From NCBI GenBank assembly GCA_029934515.1, contig JAOZMB010000004.1, forward strand, positions 1-60,249: a stretch of 60,249 nucleotides of DNA, in the 5' to 3' direction. The notes under the pieces are model-generated. The model searched no databases. It was not told the DNA's origin and saw nothing but the letters and a program-made list of their open reading frames with translations. Numbering within the stretch: the first letter of the stretch is position 1; each line of letters starts with the position of its first letter. Source of the stretch: Bacteroidales bacterium (GTDB lineage: Bacteria; Bacteroidota; Bacteroidia; Bacteroidales; JAADGE01). A program made the position numbers and the translations under genes. Below, piece by piece: positions 34,960 through 43,499 of this stretch.

Positions 34960-35721
34960 ATGAAAAATAATATAATTTTTGATAATGCGGCAATAGATAG
35001 ATTAATGAAAATTGCTAATATCAAACAAGAAAAATATGATGAATGGCTAATAAATGAAACAAATCTATCGAAAGAAAAAGAAAAAATATTGTCTTTTGGA
35101 AGAGTAACTTTGTCCAGTTTAAAAAAAGTGGTAAATATTGAACTTCGATACAATAAAATTAAATTTGATAATTGGTTTAATTATAAATACAAATTAGAAG
35201 AGGAGGAGAATATTTTTTTGGAAAATTTAATAGAAAAAAATCGTTTATATCTAACTCTTTATAACGAACAAACTTTGACTATAAAATTTATAGGATTAGT
35301 TTTAAATAAAGTGAACTTTATAAAAAAAGATATAAAAGATTGGTACGGATATAAAATAAAATGTAAATTAAATAACTATATCTTGAACGGCGAACCAGAC
35401 TTCACTGTTGCTACAGGAATAGAAGAACCTGAGACTCCTTATTTTTTCCTTCAAGAATACAAACGCTCTGTAAATCCCACTGGCAATCCAGAGTTCCAAG
35501 TTCTTGCTGCTATGCTCACCGCAATGACTTTAAACAAAACAAATAAAATAATAGGTGGATACATAATCGGAAGATATTGGAACTTTATTATTCTCGAAAA
35601 ATTAGAAAACGAGAAATACGAATACTTTGTTTCTGATGGATTTGATTGTTTGAAATTTGACGATTTAAAACAAATTTATATAAATTTGCAGGCAGTGAAA
35701 TTTTTATATTGTAAATTATAA
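34960..35721 (+). CDS. PD-(D/E)XK-type family protein, paralogue 1
   Basis: A 253-residue protein of a family often found in several copies in Bacteroidota and of unknown function. The C-terminal half has the nuclease-like pattern PDF (Asp147) ... QEYK (Glu166, Lys168) within NGEPDFTVATGIEEPETP and FFLQEYKR, then EFQVLAAML and GGYIIGRYWNF. The N-terminus has a short helical repeat (DRLMKIANIKQEKYDEWL) also found in paralogues 2 and 3. The first 120 nt and last 170 nt are almost identical among copies, the middle is not. Nuclease activity is inferred. Confidence 0.7.
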   Translation: MKNNIIFDNAAIDRLMKIANIKQEKYDEWLINETNLSKEKEKILSFGRVTLSSLKKVVNIELRYNKIKFDNWFNYKYKLEEEENIFLENLIEKNRLYLTLYNEQTLTIKFIGLVLNKVNFIKKDIKDWYGYKIKCKLNNYILNGEPDFTVATGIEEPETPYFFLQEYKRSVNPTGNPEFQVLAAMLTAMTLNKTNKIIGGYIIGRYWNFIILEKLENEKYEYFVSDGFDCLKFDDLKQIYINLQAVKFLYCKL

Positions 35722-35793
35722 ACTTAAAATAAAAATATTATGAAAAAAACACTCAAAATTTGATGTGTTTGCTCTAAAAATTTAATTAAAAAA

Positions 35794-35825
35794 TTGTTTT
35801 TGTGAAAATAAAATTACTACATTTG
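35794..35825 (+). promoter_or_regulatory. Promoter of the vapBC remnant
   Basis: TTG at 35794-35796 and TACATTTG at 35818-35825, 21 bp apart, fit the Bacteroidota consensus and lie 39 nt before the antitoxin ATG. Confidence 0.55.
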
Positions 35826-35863
35826 TTTTTTTATTTCAATAACTATTTTTATTCGACTTAATA

Positions 35864-36115
35864 ATGGAAACAATAACAGAAAAAAAAGCAGGAATAATAA
35901 ACAAATTAGATTTATTGACAGAAGAAAAATTAAATAATGTAGAAATGTTTATTCAATTCCTTATTTACGAAAAACCGTTAGGAGAAAAACTAATTCATAG
36001 AAAAAAAAATAAAAAAAATGACAATGATTTTTTTGAAATATGTGGAATATGGCAAGATAGAAATATAGATGTAAATAGCTTACGAAAAAAAGCATGGAGG
36101 AATATCGAATGGTAA
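35864..36115 (+). CDS. Antitoxin of a VapBC-type module
   Basis: An 83-residue antitoxin-like protein. The N-terminal helical segment (IINKLDLLTEEKLNNVEMFIQFL) and the C-terminal tail (FFEICGIWQDRNIDVNSLRKKAW) match small antitoxins paired with PIN toxins in Bacteroidota. The stop codon overlaps the toxin start as ATGGTAA (36109-36115), a classic module arrangement. It has its own promoter-like element. The toxin partner is truncated, so this gene may survive as an orphan. Confidence 0.75.
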   Translation: METITEKKAGIINKLDLLTEEKLNNVEMFIQFLIYEKPLGEKLIHRKKNKKNDNDFFEICGIWQDRNIDVNSLRKKAWRNIEW

Positions 36116-36294
36116 TTTTAGATACAAATATTGTTATCGAGTTGTTTAAAAACAACCAAAATATCAAACAAAAAATTAAAGATATCGGAACTAAAAATCT
36201 TGCAATTTCAGTTGGTGAATTTTATTACGGTGCTTTAAATAAACGTGAAATGAAACTTATTAAGAAGCATTGCAATTATTACTATGTACTTTAA
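36109..36294 (+). pseudogene. VapC PIN-domain toxin, truncated
   Basis: The start MVILDTNIVIELFKNN carries the first catalytic Asp (residue 5) of PIN-domain RNases, and ISVGEFYYGALNKREMK follows. The frame stops after 61 residues, about half of a normal VapC of about 130 residues, so the later acidic residues are lost. The stop falls exactly where a 78-bp direct repeat begins (36294), which is the 3' end of a paralogue gene plus spacer. The toxin was therefore cut by recombination or insertion of the paralogue and is probably dead. Confidence 0.8.
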
Positions 36295-36371
36295 TAAATT
36301 TGCAAGCAGTGAAATTTTTATATTGTAAATTATAACCTTAAAACAAAAATATTATGAAAAATAATATAATT
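36294..36371 (+). repeat. 78-bp direct repeat, copy 1
   Basis: Identical to 37074-37151, exactly 780 bp away. It consists of the last 12 or so codons of a paralogue gene (encoding NLQAVKFLYCKL), the spacer TAACCTTAAAACAAAAATATT and the first six codons of the next paralogue; the spacer runs 36334-36353 approximately. A less exact third copy lies at the end of paralogue 1 near 35675-35745. Here it has no gene body upstream, so it marks a recombination junction. Confidence 0.9.
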
Positions 36372-37115
36372 TTTGATAATATGGCAATAGAAAGACTAAT
36401 AAAAATTGCTAATATCAAACAAGAAAAATATGAAGAATGGCTAATAAATGAAAATTATTTATCGCAAGCAAAAGAAAAAAAATTAAATTTCCGTGCAGCA
36501 ACAATAGAAAAATTAATAGAAATTGTAAACATAGAGCAGATAGTCGAAGAAGATAAATTCAACGAATGGTTTTCATATAAATACGAACTTAAAGAAGAAG
36601 AAAATCTTTTTTTAAAAGAACTTATAAAAGATAATATAATTTATTTATCTTCTTTTAACGAAAGAACTTTAACAGCAAAATTTATAGTGCCTATTTTAAA
36701 TAAGATAAAATTTAGAAATAAAAGAGTAAAAGATTGGTATGAATATTCAATAAGTTGCAGATTAAATGACTATATATTGAATGGATTTCCAGATTTCTTT
36801 GTTGCTTCTGGAATAGACGAACCAAAGGAGCCTTATTTCTTCTTACAGGAATACAAAAGAGAAATTAAATCATCTGGACATCCAAAATATCAGGTCATTG
36901 CTGCCATGCTTGCCGCCATGACTTTAAACAAAACAAATACAATAATAGGTGGATACATAATTGGCAGATATTGGAACTTTATTATTCTTGATAAATTAGA
37001 AAACGAGAAATACGAATATTTTATTTCTGATGGATTTGATTGTTTGAAATTTGACGATTTAAAACAAATTTATATAAATTTGCAAGCAGTGAAATTTTTA
37101 TATTGTAAATTATAA
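36354..37115 (+). CDS. PD-(D/E)XK-type family protein, paralogue 2
   Basis: A 253-residue paralogue with the same layout: an N-terminal helical unit (ERLIKIANIKQEKYEEWL), a variable middle, then FPDFFVASGIDEPKEPYFF and QEYKRE with the PD and ExK residues kept. The residue before PDF is Phe in place of Glu. The last 60 residues are nearly the same as in paralogue 1. The stretch upstream of its ATG is the repeat junction, so it may lack its own promoter and depend on read-through from the vapBC promoter. Confidence 0.7.
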   Translation: MKNNIIFDNMAIERLIKIANIKQEKYEEWLINENYLSQAKEKKLNFRAATIEKLIEIVNIEQIVEEDKFNEWFSYKYELKEEENLFLKELIKDNIIYLSSFNERTLTAKFIVPILNKIKFRNKRVKDWYEYSISCRLNDYILNGFPDFFVASGIDEPKEPYFFLQEYKREIKSSGHPKYQVIAAMLAAMTLNKTNTIIGGYIIGRYWNFIILDKLENEKYEYFISDGFDCLKFDDLKQIYINLQAVKFLYCKL

Positions 37116-37151
37116 CCTTAAAACAAAAATATTATGAAAAATAATATAATT
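37074..37151 (+). repeat. 78-bp direct repeat, copy 2
   Basis: Identical to 36294-36371. It spans the end of paralogue 2, the 18-nt spacer, and the first codons of paralogue 3. This is its natural context, whereas copy 1 lacks the gene body before it. Confidence 0.9.
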
Positions 37152-37901
37152 CTTGATGATGCAGCAATGGAAAGATTAATAAAAATTGCTAATATCAAAC
37201 AAGAAAAATATGATGAATGGCTAATAAATGAAAAAAATCTATCGAAAGAAAAAGAAAAAAATTTGTCTTTTGGAAACTCAACAATAGAAAAATTAATGGA
37301 AATTGTTGATATAGAGCGGGTTTCAAATAAAAATAAGTTTAATAAATGGTTTGATTACAAATACAAATTATCAGAAAATGAGAATAACTTTTTGGAGAAC
37401 CTAATTGAAGAGAACGAACTATTTTTGACATTTTACAACGAGCAAAATTTAACAACAAAATTTATAGCTCCTATTTTGAACAAAATAAAATTCCAGAATA
37501 AGTACATAAAAGATTGGTACGGATACAAAATAAAATGCAAATTGAACGGTTATTTTTTAAGCGGAGAACCAGATTTTTCTATTGCAACTGGAATTTCTGT
37601 TCCTAAAACACCTTACTTTTTCTTGCAGGAATACAAACGTTCTATAAATCCGAAAGGAAATCCAGAGTTCCAAGTTCTTGCAGCTATGCTTACAGCCACA
37701 ACATTGAATAATACAAACGAAATAAAAGGCGGTTATATTATCGGAGAACTTTGGAAGTTTATTGTCCTCAAAAAATTAGAAAACGAGAAATACGAATATT
37801 TTGTTTCTGATGGATTTGATTGTTTGAAACTTAACGATTTAAAACAAATTTACATAAATTTGCAAGCAGTGAAATTTTTATATTGTAAAGTAGAATATTA
37901 A
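37134..37901 (+). CDS. PD-(D/E)XK-type family protein, paralogue 3
   Basis: A 255-residue paralogue, 18 nt after paralogue 2. It keeps the helical N-terminus (ERLIKIANIKQEKYDEWL), the GEPDFSIATGISVPKTPYF and QEYKRS motifs and the C-terminal block FVSDGFDCLKLNDLKQIYIN. Its N-terminal 45 residues are closest to paralogue 1. The C-terminus ends KVEY in place of KL because of small changes at the stop. It is followed 15 nt later by kdsC, so the two may be cotranscribed. Confidence 0.7.
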   Translation: MKNNIILDDAAMERLIKIANIKQEKYDEWLINEKNLSKEKEKNLSFGNSTIEKLMEIVDIERVSNKNKFNKWFDYKYKLSENENNFLENLIEENELFLTFYNEQNLTTKFIAPILNKIKFQNKYIKDWYGYKIKCKLNGYFLSGEPDFSIATGISVPKTPYFFLQEYKRSINPKGNPEFQVLAAMLTATTLNNTNEIKGGYIIGELWKFIVLKKLENEKYEYFVSDGFDCLKLNDLKQIYINLQAVKFLYCKVEY

Positions 37902-39571: not shown

Positions 39572-39597
39572 AAAAACATGTTATACAACATGTTTTT
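39572..39597 (+). terminator. Intrinsic terminator after the NlpC/P60 gene
   Basis: AAAAACATGTT (39572-39582), a 4-nt loop and AACATGTTTTT (39587-39597) form an 11-bp stem ending in T. It lies 58 nt after the NlpC/P60 stop. A related weaker pair, CAATATGTT (39660-39668) and AACATATTG (39676-39684), follows. Confidence 0.7.
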
Positions 39598-39702: not shown

Positions 39703-39740
39703 GATTCTTGAATGTAAAGTAAACTTTACATTCAAGAATC
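39703..39740. promoter_or_regulatory. 36-nt perfect palindrome upstream of caspase gene (site 1)
   Basis: GATTCTTGAATGTAAAGT (39703-39720) and its exact complement (39723-39740) are separated by two A residues. The core GTAAAGTAAACTTTAC shares the motif TGTAAAGTAA with site 2. No T-tract follows, so it is more likely a protein-binding site than a terminator. Confidence 0.6.
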
Positions 39741-39757
39741 AATAGTTGTTTGCCTTT

Positions 39758-39802
39758 AAATGTAAACCTTACTTTACATAATGTAAAGTAAGGTTTACAT
39801 TT
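39758..39802. promoter_or_regulatory. 45-nt perfect palindrome upstream of caspase gene (site 2)
   Basis: AAATGTAAACCTTACTTTACAT (39758-39779, split here as AAATGTAAACC then TTACTTTACAT) pairs exactly with 39781-39802 around a single A. It ends 15 nt before the TATATTTG -7 element at 39818-39825, so it would cover the -33 region. It shares ATGTAAAGTAA with site 1. This looks like an operator that controls the caspase-like gene. Confidence 0.6.
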
Positions 39803-39817
39803 GAGTTTATTTATTTA

Positions 39818-39825
39818 TATATTTG
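39818..39825 (+). promoter_or_regulatory. -7 element of the caspase-like gene
   Basis: TATATTTG matches TAnnTTTG. It lies 43 nt before the TTG start and just after palindrome site 2, whose right arm occupies the place of the -33 element. Confidence 0.55.
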
Positions 39826-39868
39826 CTAAATATTAACAGACTACTATTTCTAAAAAAAATAGGGATAA

Positions 39869-40756
39869 TTGGCAACGGCAAGCATTCATAAAGCAAAATC
39901 TGACAGACATTCTGTTAAAGCTTTACTGATAGGAATATCGAAATATAAAAACGATACTTCGCTCAGCTCAATTCCTAATGTCAAAAAAAATATAAAATTG
40001 TTAGAAAAAGCTTTGCTGTCGAATTATGCTTTACATATAAACAAAAAAGATATAACGATTTCACTTAATGAGAACAAAACAGATATTGAACGAAGGTTGA
40101 TGCAAGCCGCAACAGAAGCAAAAAATCACAACTATACTTTATTGGTTTATTATTCGGGACACGGAATTATAAGTACACAAAATTTTAATCTGTATTTATC
40201 TGCGGGGGATACAACTAATAATTATCTTGAAGCTGATGGTATTCATGTTGACCGTTTTTCAGAGATTATTGAAGGTTCAAGAGCTGGGAAAAAAATTGTT
40301 ATCGTAGATTCTTGTTACAGTGGGGCGGTTCACTATTCAATGCGAAAAGTTATATCAAAATCTAAACGGCAATTCAATTCAATTGAAAATACTTATGTTG
40401 TTAGTTCAACATCAAAAGACAATACGGCAAGATATCCAGTTGGAAATAAGGAACTGCCAACATGTTTTACAGCTAAACTAATTGATATTATTTATAACGG
40501 CATAAATAATAATAAAGCTACTCTGACAATTCATGATATTTGTCGGGAAATTAAGCGCGCACTAAGAAACAGCGAGGATATTCCTTCACCACAATATTCT
40601 TCATTTGACAATGCCAGGGGAATTATTTTTGCGAAAAATAATATTGACAACAAAAATATCCCACAAAGTTCATCTCAATGTCCATATAACGTCTTACACT
40701 CTAACAAAAAACAAAAATCTAATTTTTTTAATCGTGCTGTTTCTGCTTTAAAATAA
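39869..40756 (+). CDS. Caspase-like (C14) cysteine protease
   Basis: A 295-residue protein with a caspase/metacaspase p20-like domain (about residues 15-255). The catalytic dyad is His98 in YYSGHG and Cys149 in VDSCYSG. The N-terminal KALLIGISKYKN strand and SSTSKDNTARYP after the Cys are typical. It has no signal peptide, transmembrane segment or C-terminal effector domain, so it is a small soluble protease. The start is a TTG at 39869. Bacterial relatives act in defence and programmed death when coupled to a sensor. Here the nearest partner is a convergent AAA+ ATPase. Confidence 0.88.
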   Translation: MATASIHKAKSDRHSVKALLIGISKYKNDTSLSSIPNVKKNIKLLEKALLSNYALHINKKDITISLNENKTDIERRLMQAATEAKNHNYTLLVYYSGHGIISTQNFNLYLSAGDTTNNYLEADGIHVDRFSEIIEGSRAGKKIVIVDSCYSGAVHYSMRKVISKSKRQFNSIENTYVVSSTSKDNTARYPVGNKELPTCFTAKLIDIIYNGINNNKATLTIHDICREIKRALRNSEDIPSPQYSSFDNARGIIFAKNNIDNKNIPQSSSQCPYNVLHSNKKQKSNFFNRAVSALK

Positions 40757-40804: not shown

Positions 40805-41035
40805 CAAATTTTGTGCCAAGTATAATATTATTAAGAAAAACAGCTCTTTTTTATAAAACAACGGCATTTTTCATAAAAAAGAACTTTAATATTTGTTTAC
40901 CAAATTAATACAAATTTTGTGCCAAATGTAATATTATTAAAAAAAACAGCTCTTTTCTATAAAATAACGGCATTTTTCATAAAAAAGAACTTTAATATTT
41001 ATTTACCAAATTAATACAAATTTTGTGCCAAGTAT
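40805..41035. repeat. 106-bp tandem direct repeat, about 2.2 copies
   Basis: Two full units (40805-40910 and 40911-41016) differ at about six positions, and a partial third unit covers 41017-41035. Each starts CAAATTTTGTGCCAA. Each contains a hairpin: TCTTTTTTAT (40845-40854) with ATAAAAAAGA (40873-40882), and the matching region in unit 2 at 40951-40988 with one mismatch. The repeat fills the gap between the convergent caspase and ATPase genes. It may be a duplicated bidirectional terminator. Confidence 0.92.
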
Positions 41036-41042
41036 TAATTTT

Positions 41043-42203
41043 TTAATTATGTTTTTTTAATTTTATTAATACTTTCATCAACGGATTTTTGAAACGATAT
41101 TTACGTTTTCGAGTACTTCCTGTTCTTTCAAGAATTTTGCCTCTCTCTGGACGACAGAGCATACCAATATTGTATCTAATTGCTTCTTCTTGTGTTTTTG
41201 TTTTTGTAATTGCATTATATTTGTCAAGTACTTTTTCAATTGTATAAGTATCTGATTCATCTGGTTCAACAATTGCACAGGCATAAACAATATCTTCGAA
41301 TTTGTTTTTGCTACCAGCAGATTTCACGGCAAGCGAATAAGACGTATTAAGACTGTGTTCGGAGTTTTTAATACTCATCTTAACAGCATAATCAAATTGT
41401 TTTTTTGTTATTTTGTTGAGGTTATTTACAACAGTATTGTATGCTGCAAATTTACACAACAAGTGTATATAATGAGGAAATCCAGACGAGTATTCAATAA
41501 TTTTTTCAACAATATTTTTGCTTATAGTTAGTCTCAGCGATTGTAAATTTCTGCTAATTAATAATTCAGCTTCATGTCGTGTCATAACTGGTAATTTTAT
41601 TTGTTTTATACATCGTTCTAGCGAAGGATGATATCCTATTAAATCAGCAATATTTCGAGCAATACCAATTATCAGCAATGTAACATTAGGAACATTATCA
41701 GAAAATGATTTTATTGTATCTGCCATCATTATTTTTGTTTCATTACTGCTCACACAATCAAATTCATCAAAAACAAGTAATATAGGACTCTGAATTTCAA
41801 TAAATAATTCTTCTACATCTGATGTATCTATAAAGTTTTTTTTAGGTAATATTAATTGAACAAGTTCGGATTTTTCTGATGTGTTAAATCCAATTTCATA
41901 TTTCGACCTATAATATTTCACTTTTCTTGTCATTTTATTCCAAAGCGACATATAGTTATCTGTTCTGTTACATGTTATTTTAGCAATAAAAACATTTGTA
42001 AATACTTGGTTTAGTATGTTTGCAAGTGATGTTTTTCCGGCTCCTCTTTTCCCGTACATTATAGCATGTTGTCCATTTTCTTCGATTGCTGTTTTTATAT
42101 TAAAAATTTGTTTATTCCTTCCAGCAAATAAATTTATATTTTTGATAGGTGCCGATGGACTGAATATCTGATATATAGCTGATATTTTTTCTTCTTTTGT
42201 CAT
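41043..42203 (-). CDS. AAA+ ATPase, ORC/STAND-like
   Basis: A 386-residue P-loop ATPase. Walker A GKRGAGKTS is at residues 52-59 region and Walker B LLVFDEFD at about 141-148. A sensor-like arginine follows (GIARNIADLIGYHPSLERC). The N-terminal NLFAGRNKQIFNIKTAI is typical of stand-alone ATPases of the ORC/AAA_16 type. The C-terminal part (about 245-386) is helical with a basic tail (TRKRKYRFKNPLMKVLIKLKK), probably winged-helix. It converges on the caspase-like gene. A role as its sensor or activator is an inference. Confidence 0.82.
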   Translation of the reverse strand: MTKEEKISAIYQIFSPSAPIKNINLFAGRNKQIFNIKTAIEENGQHAIMYGKRGAGKTSLANILNQVFTNVFIAKITCNRTDNYMSLWNKMTRKVKYYRSKYEIGFNTSEKSELVQLILPKKNFIDTSDVEELFIEIQSPILLVFDEFDCVSSNETKIMMADTIKSFSDNVPNVTLLIIGIARNIADLIGYHPSLERCIKQIKLPVMTRHEAELLISRNLQSLRLTISKNIVEKIIEYSSGFPHYIHLLCKFAAYNTVVNNLNKITKKQFDYAVKMSIKNSEHSLNTSYSLAVKSAGSKNKFEDIVYACAIVEPDESDTYTIEKVLDKYNAITKTKTQEEAIRYNIGMLCRPERGKILERTGSTRKRKYRFKNPLMKVLIKLKKHN

Positions 42204-42237
42204 TTTTTTATTTATTTATAAAATTTATATTTTTTTT

Positions 42238-42245
42238 CAAATATA
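42238..42245 (-). promoter_or_regulatory. -7 element of the AAA+ ATPase gene
   Basis: The minus strand reads TATATTTG, which fits TAnnTTTG, 35 nt before the ATPase start. It lies only 6 nt from the plus-strand -7 element of the citrate-lyase-like gene, so the two promoters overlap back to back. Confidence 0.5.
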
Positions 42246-42251
42246 AAATAA

Positions 42252-42259
42252 TACATTTG
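42252..42259 (+). promoter_or_regulatory. -7 element of the CitD-CitE gene
   Basis: TACATTTG matches TAnnTTTG and lies 25 nt before the ATG at 42285. Its -33 region would cover the divergent promoter of the ATPase. Confidence 0.55.
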
Positions 42260-42284
42260 TACTGAAACAAACAAAATTTTTTTT

Positions 42285-43499
42285 ATGAAAAATTTAAAAT
42301 TTACAGCAGGCAACAAGGGTGGACGTGTACGTTCTGATTGCTATGTAACTTTTGAGCCGAAAGAATCAGGCGGGATAAGTATAAATTTACAAAGTAAAGT
42401 TGGTGTGATGTATGGTGATGCAATAAAAGAACTTTGTAGAAAGGAATTGGATTTTTTTGGTATTAAAAATGCGTTAATTACTATTGAGGATTCAGGAGCG
42501 TTGGATTTCACAATTGCAGCTCGCATAGAATCTGTTGTGAGACAGGCTACTGGTACAGAGAAGGAGTTCTTGCTTGATATGCTTGATGCAAATAAATATC
42601 AAACGTTGAGAGATAGATTTAGGTTTTCGCGGCTTTATTTGCCTGGCAATACACCAAGTATGATGATAAATGCTGGTATTCATCAACCTAATGGAATTAT
42701 TCTTGACCTCGAAGATTCTGTGGCACATGTCAAAAAATCAGAAGCACAACTTCTGATAAGAAATGCTCTTAGAGCAGTGAATTTTTATAAAGCAGAAAGG
42801 ATGGTTCGTATTAATCAATTACCAAACGGACTCGATGATATTAAATTTGTTGTGAGACATTATGTTAATCTTTTGTTGATACCTAAATGCGAAAGTTCCA
42901 AACAAATTAAACAAGTTGATGATGCTGTTGAGGCTGAAAGAAAAAAACATGGTTTCAAATATCCAGTTTATTACATGCCTATAATAGAAAGCGCACTTGG
43001 AGTTGAGAAAGCTTTTGAGATAGCAACTGCTTCTGATAATGTTGTTGCAGTAGCAATTGGCTTAGAAGATTTTACGGCAGATTTAGGAGTCAGACGAACA
43101 AAAGAAGGCAAGGAATCGCTTTATGCACGTACTCGTTTGGTAAATGCTTGTAAGGCGGCTGGTGTTCAAGCCATAGATTCTGTGTTCTCTGATGTTGCCG
43201 ATGAAGAAGGTTTATGTTTAAATGTTCAAACGTCAAAAGCACTCGGTTTTGAAGGAATGGGCTGTATTCATCCACGACAAATAAATCCAATACACAAAAA
43301 TTTTGCACCAGAGAAAGACCAAATCGAAAGAGCAAAAAAGATTATTATAGCTTTTGAAGATGCAAAAGAAAAAGGACTTGGCGTTATTTCAATAGGTACA
43401 AAAATGATAGACCCACCAGTTGTAAAAAGAGCTGAAACAACAGTAAAACTTGCCGTAAAATTAGGATTATTAAACAGCAATTGGATAGAAGAAGAGTAG
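42285..43499 (+). CDS. CitD-CitE fusion (citrate lyase-like)
   Basis: A 404-residue fusion. Residues about 3-92 match the citrate lyase acyl-carrier subunit CitD (KFTAGNKGGRVRSDCYVTF with a Ser near 18, and ITIEDSGALDFTIAARIES). Residues about 108-390 match the CitE/HpcH aldolase beta subunit (RLYLPGNTPSMM, GIILDLEDSVAHVKKSEA, MPIIESALGVEKA, GFEGMGCIHPRQI). CitE cuts citryl-thioester to acetyl-thioester and oxaloacetate. The alpha subunit CitF and the prosthetic-group genes citC, citX and citG are absent nearby. The substrate may therefore be another acyl-thioester. Confidence 0.83.
   Translation: MKNLKFTAGNKGGRVRSDCYVTFEPKESGGISINLQSKVGVMYGDAIKELCRKELDFFGIKNALITIEDSGALDFTIAARIESVVRQATGTEKEFLLDMLDANKYQTLRDRFRFSRLYLPGNTPSMMINAGIHQPNGIILDLEDSVAHVKKSEAQLLIRNALRAVNFYKAERMVRINQLPNGLDDIKFVVRHYVNLLLIPKCESSKQIKQVDDAVEAERKKHGFKYPVYYMPIIESALGVEKAFEIATASDNVVAVAIGLEDFTADLGVRRTKEGKESLYARTRLVNACKAAGVQAIDSVFSDVADEEGLCLNVQTSKALGFEGMGCIHPRQINPIHKNFAPEKDQIERAKKIIIAFEDAKEKGLGVISIGTKMIDPPVVKRAETTVKLAVKLGLLNSNWIEEE

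What the first reader, a model, noticed from the sequence alone, without database searches (positions are those of the whole stretch)
39703..39825. Two near-perfect palindromes sharing TGTAAAGTAA upstream of the caspase-like gene
An 18-bp-arm palindrome (39703-39740) and a 22-bp-arm palindrome (39758-39802) share the motif ATGTAAAGTAA. The second one ends 15 nt before the TATATTTG -7 element and so occupies the -33 region. No T-tract follows either one. Such length and perfection are unusual and fit an operator for a dimeric or multimeric regulator, or a cruciform or RNA hairpin with a regulatory role.
Basis: seen in the sequence. Interest (0 to 1): 0.6.

Follow-up and report, generated by a model that had tools for sequence, protein, structure and literature searches.

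The report
Triple repressor operator before caspase gene
The two palindromes are three copies of a DNA-binding site that bacteria of many phyla carry next to a small repressor gene of the CylR2 type; here they sit on the promoter of a caspase-like (possible cell-death) gene, probably to keep it switched off until a signal arrives.

Summary
Two perfect palindromes (39703-39740 and 39758-39802) lie between an NlpC/P60 gene and a caspase-like gene, far beyond chance. They contain three copies of one 20-mer, ATGTAAAGTAA-N2-TTTACAT. The genome has three exact copies, all here, so this is not a dispersed repeat. Intrinsic terminators fit poorly.

A scan of one genome per species found the 20-mer (followed by T) in 57 contigs from many phyla. 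In 32 of the 57, against 0 of 53 control loci, a gene for a small Cro/C1-type regulator resembling CylR2, the E. faecalis cytolysin repressor, lies nearby; in 31 within 550 bp. The window's genome has one strong member of that family, on another contig; its closest hit among these loci, in Prolixibacter, has an operator identical to a P2 arm over 23 nt.

The second palindrome is a double operator with 21-bp spacing, seen also in a Balneolaceae genome, and it overlaps the caspase core promoter. Best reading: an operator array for a CylR2-like repressor of the caspase gene. The operator family is well supported; the exact regulator, the sign of control and the signal are inferred. The perfect outer arms are not explained by protein binding.

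The parts
39703..39740 (.). Palindrome P1: operator site 1 with 9 further perfectly complementary bases on each side
39712..39731 (+). Operator site 1, ATGTAAAGTAAACTTTACAT
   Evidence: exact operator 20-mer; 'AC' is the commonest centre among 60 sites (34 of 60)
39758..39802 (.). Palindrome P2: two operators in inverted orientation, centres 21 bp apart (two helical turns)
   Evidence: the same 21-bp pair in locus L151
39760..39779 (-). Operator site 2, ATGTAAAGTAAGGTTTACAT on the minus strand
39781..39800 (+). Operator site 3, ATGTAAAGTAAGGTTTACAT; with the following TTG identical over 23 nt to the Prolixibacter operator in L169
39796..39803 (+). Candidate -7 element TACATTTG, partly inside site 3; the same overlap in L138, L140, L155, L159 and L169
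   Evidence: sequence
39794..39797 (+). Candidate -33 element TTTA inside site 3, 20 nt before TATATTTG; aligned with TTTG of three relatives
39818..39825 (+).
   Evidence: one search scores TTTACA(39794)-18-TATATT as one of the best promoter-like pairs
39869..40756 (+). Caspase-like gene, 295 aa, TTG start
   Evidence: Pfam PF00656 E 5e-15; NCBIfam NF047832 'caspase, EACC1-associated type' 155 bits, cut-off 140; homologues
39572..39597 (+). Hairpin with T-run after the NlpC/P60 gene, probable terminator separating upstream transcription
   Evidence: core ATGTTATACAACAT also lies upstream of caspase homologues

Best explanation
The region is a promoter-overlapping array of three operators for a CylR2-type regulator (a roughly 66-residue Cro/C1-family HTH dimer). 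Site 3 overlaps the core promoter of the caspase-like gene, site 2 lies two helical turns upstream on the same face, and site 1 lies 48 bp further up. Dimers would bind cooperatively at sites 2 and 3 and perhaps loop to site 1, block RNA polymerase and keep the caspase gene off until a signal releases the repressor. The candidate regulator in this genome is the single strong CylR2-like protein, on contig C18 (4766-4957, minus strand). Shown: the sites, their uniqueness in the genome, the cross-phylum link between this exact 20-mer and CylR2-like genes, and the overlap with promoter-like elements. Inferred: binding by the C18 protein, repression rather than activation, cooperativity, the signal, and any cell-death outcome.
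For: GTDB-wide exact scan: ATGTAAAGTAARSTTTACATT in 57 contigs of Bacillota, Bacteroidota, Planctomycetota, Marinimicrobia, Patescibacteria, Acinetobacter and others, many upstream of genes and beside TTGACA-like boxes. tblastn with the window genome's own C18 protein: hit in 32 of 57 loci, 31 of them within 550 bp of the site; 0 of 53 control loci (487 kb). HTH family aligned, Pfam HTH_3 in all 20, PDB relatives CylR2 1utx/2xiu and 9k3w. Own genome: one strong family member (C18, E 9e-27; next hits about 31 bits) and three exact sites, all here. Best hit of C18 among the loci is Prolixibacter (64%), whose operator plus flank ATGTAAAGTAAGGTTTACATTTG is identical to site 3. A 21-bp double site with the same TTTACATAATGTAAAGTAA junction is in L151; L137 shares the junction. 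An operator overlapping TACATTTG recurs in Bacteroidota.
Against: C18 has orthologues in nearly all family members searched whose caspase promoters, where a homologue exists, lack these sites, and near-matches in the family are scattered; C18's own promoter has no site. 25 of 57 operator loci had no CylR2-like hit (some loci are short). The membrane partner usual elsewhere was not found in this genome (no positive control). The perfect outer arms of P1 and the exact mirror copy in P2 exceed what binding requires. No expression or binding data.
Confidence: 0.72

Rival explanations
1. The sites are operators of the CylR2 family, but the regulator is not C18: it lies in the missing part of the draft genome or on a mobile element, or the array is an orphan left after loss of its regulator operon.
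For: Draft of 201 contigs, 97.97% complete. C18 orthologues across the family have no conserved site of this kind nearby.
Against: C18 shares VSRQTIHAIE with the Prolixibacter regulator whose operator is identical. Three intact copies argue against an unused relic.
Confidence: 0.25
2. Same operators, but the regulator activates the caspase promoter: depending on the start site, site 3 would be near -41 and site 2 near -62, positions typical of activators.
For: If TATATTTG is the -7 element and transcription starts near 39831, site centres fall near -41 and -62 (arithmetic).
Against: CylR2 is described as a repressor bound to its promoter (PMC3709268); in several Bacteroidota the operator overlaps TACATTTG itself.
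Confidence: 0.2
3. RNA hairpins: P1 and P2 act in a transcript on the + strand, as terminators, stabilisers or a double-stranded RNA, shielding the caspase gene from read-through.
For: Both fold at about -29 kcal/mol, z about -10; pairs flanking the perfect arms are mostly G.U on the + strand, mismatched on the other strand. One search lists both as weak terminator-like on + only.
Against: No proper T-run; the deduced promoters lie at or after P2, so the caspase mRNA would not include the hairpins; a T-run hairpin at 39572-39597 precedes them; not conserved in relatives; no Rfam match; does not explain the cross-phylum operator link.
Confidence: 0.12
4. TyrR-like boxes: TGTAAA-N6-TTTACA is the TyrR consensus, so a TyrR-type aromatic amino acid regulator would control the gene.
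For: All three sites match the published consensus (PMC4374768).
Against: The only TyrR-HTH (PF18024) match is a generic sigma-54 activator at the cut-off (27.5 bits against 27), with the AAA domain almost directly at the N-terminus. The constant GTAA centre is not part of the TyrR consensus but fits the CylR2-associated operator.
Confidence: 0.02
5. Member of a dispersed palindromic repeat family (REP or MITE type).
For: Three related copies within 90 bp.
Against: No other exact copy in 3.34 Mb; only 7 of 393 genomes of the order have the 18-mer TGTAAAGTAANNTTTACA.
Confidence: 0.01

Closest known systems
CylR2 operator at the PL promoter of the Enterococcus faecalis cytolysin operon (CylR1/CylR2 pair)
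   Same: Regulator of the same HTH family (C18 protein hits CylR2 1utx at E 3.5e-12); CylR2 binds the promoter of the genes it represses; a small membrane-protein gene often accompanies the regulator in the loci found here, as CylR1 does CylR2 (PMC3709268).
   Different: Target here is a caspase-like gene, the regulator gene is unlinked, three sites are used, no membrane partner was found. The E. faecalis operator sequence could not be compared: the EMBO J. 2004 paper is not held.
Membrane-protein plus small Cro/C1 HTH operons with ATGTAAAGTAARSTTTACAT operators (e.g. Prolixibacter denitrificans L169, Dyadobacter L174, Acinetobacter L144)
   Same: Same 20-mer at a promoter; L169 identical over 23 nt to site 3; L151 (Balneolaceae) has the same 21-bp double site.
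   Different: There the operator precedes the membrane-protein/regulator operon; here it precedes a caspase gene.
TyrR boxes of Enterobacteriaceae
   Same: TGTAAA-N6-TTTACA, paired boxes.
   Different: No TyrR found in this genome; different centre; different kind of target.

Membership tests
CylR2-type (Cro/C1 HTH) operator | Matches the operator 20-mer that co-occurs with this regulator family | tested here: met
   three exact copies; family link 32/57 against 0/53
CylR2-type (Cro/C1 HTH) operator | A regulator of the family encoded in the same genome | tested here: met
   C18:4766-4957, E 8.6e-27; PDB CylR2 match
CylR2-type (Cro/C1 HTH) operator | Regulator gene next to the operator (usual, not obligatory) | tested here: not met
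   no HTH gene among the tested neighbours at 34.9-44.7 kb; C18 is another contig. Distal targets are possible, but the usual linkage is absent
CylR2-type (Cro/C1 HTH) operator | Overlap with core promoter elements | tested here: met
   site 3 covers 39794-39797 and part of 39796-39803; start site not mapped
CylR2-type (Cro/C1 HTH) operator | CylR1-like membrane partner | tested here: inconclusive
   none found with alignment A2, but no positive control
CylR2-type (Cro/C1 HTH) operator | Direct binding by the regulator | not testable with these tools
   needs gel shift or footprint
TyrR box | TGTAAA-N6-TTTACA | tested here: met
   for the consensus; for the sites
TyrR box | TyrR regulator present | tested here: not met
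   only a generic sigma-54 activator at the cut-off
Intrinsic terminator | Stem followed by a T-run | tested here: not met
   tails AATAGTTGTT and GAGTTTATTT
Dispersed palindromic repeat | Many copies in the genome | tested here: not met

The most novel reading that the evidence does not exclude
A CylR2-like repressor, from a family known for quorum-controlled toxin expression, has been rewired in this lineage to hold a prokaryotic caspase under a triple, partly looped operator, giving a signal-released cell-death switch; the perfect mirror symmetry would add a cruciform or RNA-hairpin layer.
Probability: 0.25. Interest if true: 0.65.

Novelty: new member of a known kind. Interest (0 to 1): 0.45.

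Why it matters
What switches prokaryotic caspase-like genes on is rarely known. Here sequence alone names a testable regulator, operator and promoter for one. It also suggests an operator for a widespread family of small CylR2-like regulators, by linking one 20-mer to them across many phyla.

Tried and rejected
Repeat family: rejected. Terminators: poor fit. TyrR: consensus fits but no regulator. Conserved leader RNA: no Rfam match, not conserved. Neighbouring AAA ATPase (41043-42203) as the binder: its homologues in G004 and G005 lie away from the caspase gene, with no such palindromes beside them. Plasmid match: none. Protein search for close caspase homologues in genome contigs: none. Literature search for the operator sequence: none. 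Membrane partner in own genome: none found.

Full report
Observation. Both palindromes are present as described and far exceed chance: shuffles never gave a perfect arm above 14. In about 435 kb of the same genome perfect palindromes with arms of 15 or more occur about once per 35 kb, mostly between genes; P2 is the longest.

Anatomy. The palindromes hold three copies of ATGTAAAGTAA-N2-TTTACAT: 39712-39731, 39760-39779 (minus) and 39781-39800, centres 48 and 21 bp apart. P1 is one copy with nine extra complementary bases on each side; P2 is two copies in mirror orientation. In 3.34 Mb these are the only exact copies; with up to three mismatches two other places appear, no more than the reversed-pattern control. 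The region follows a T-run hairpin after the NlpC/P60 gene and precedes a caspase-like gene (PF00656; NF047832) that starts with TTG.

Promoter. Aligning upstream regions of caspase homologues from three relatives gives a shared -33/-7 promoter; in the window its -33 falls in site 3 and its -7 is TATATTTG. The -33/-7 consensus (TTTG, about 20 nt, TAnnTTTG) is general knowledge of Bacteroidota promoters. A second TAnnTTTG, TACATTTG, is made by the end of site 3. Either way site 3 covers the core promoter. The relatives have no such palindromes, so the array is particular to this lineage.

What binds it. A scan of one genome per species for ATGTAAAGTAARSTTTACATT gave 57 contigs in many phyla, many upstream of genes. 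The neighbours are strikingly uniform: a gene for a small HTH protein of about 66 aa with the SRQT motif, either directly downstream or after a small membrane-protein gene. Searched with the window genome's own family member, 32 of 57 loci have it, 31 within 550 bp, against none in 53 control loci. The family is HTH_3 and its closest named solved relative is CylR2, the cytolysin repressor. CylR2 works with a membrane protein, CylR1 (PMC3709268; PMC12304293), which resembles the membrane-protein/HTH pairs seen here. The window's genome has one strong member, on contig C18. Its best match among the loci is Prolixibacter, 64% identical, whose operator with flank, ATGTAAAGTAAGGTTTACATTTG, equals site 3; GG at the centre is the rarest form (1 of 60 sites).

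Double site. The 21-bp pair is not unique: L151 (Balneolaceae) has two sites 21 bp apart with the same junction, and L137 shares the junction. Acinetobacter loci have pairs 43 bp apart. This fits cooperative dimers on one face of the helix. In several Bacteroidota the operator overlaps TACATTTG, which favours repression.

What remains open. C18 is conserved in relatives that lack these sites, and its own promoter has none, so its link to this operator is inference from recognition-helix identity and from being the only candidate. The mirror symmetry beyond the operators (P1 outer arms: 9 bases, against at most 4 in 60 other sites) is not needed for binding; inverted duplication or template switching is the simplest origin, but an RNA or cruciform role is not excluded. 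G.U pairs beside the arms favour a + strand RNA slightly (small numbers). The number of the 57 matches expected by chance was not measured (no scans left for a reversed pattern); the case rests on the neighbouring genes, not on the count.

Verdict. The finding is real and the operator reading is supported; the system is a new target for a known kind of regulator.

Noticed in passing
window 39578-39591: ATGTTATACAACAT hairpin core also lies upstream of caspase homologues in G001 and G005 (and a variant in G006), although there the upstream gene is secA and not NlpC/P60; the 14-mer occurs once in the own genome.
   Followed up: partly
window 40805-41035: A 106-bp unit repeated about twice, containing CAAATTTTGTGCCAA, between the convergent ends of the caspase and ATPase genes.
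   Followed up: no
window 34960-37901: Three paralogous 253-255 aa genes close together; the two tested match a PD-D/EXK model in PADLOC.
   Followed up: partly
window 35864-36294: Small gene pair, the second a short VapC-like PIN fragment (66 aa, weak NCBIfam match), probably a decayed toxin-antitoxin pair.
   Followed up: no
window 41043-43499: AAA/nSTAND ATPase gene divergent from a citrate-lyase-like gene; the same pair occurs in G004 (L079), apart from the caspase gene.
   Followed up: partly
L118-L174: The 20-mer recurs in Marinimicrobia upstream of an outer-membrane efflux-like gene and in SAR86 loci without a CylR2-like gene within the fetched DNA; what binds there is unknown.
   Followed up: no
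L013 (G006), upstream of its caspase homologue: A 14-nt perfect inverted repeat GTAACTATTCAGCC / GGCTGAATAGTTAC lies just before the start codon, a different possible control of the same gene in a relative.
   Followed up: no
G000:C64:142-161 (L060): Weak operator-like site (3 mismatches) about 165 nt upstream of a cysteine-desulfurase-like gene.
   Followed up: no
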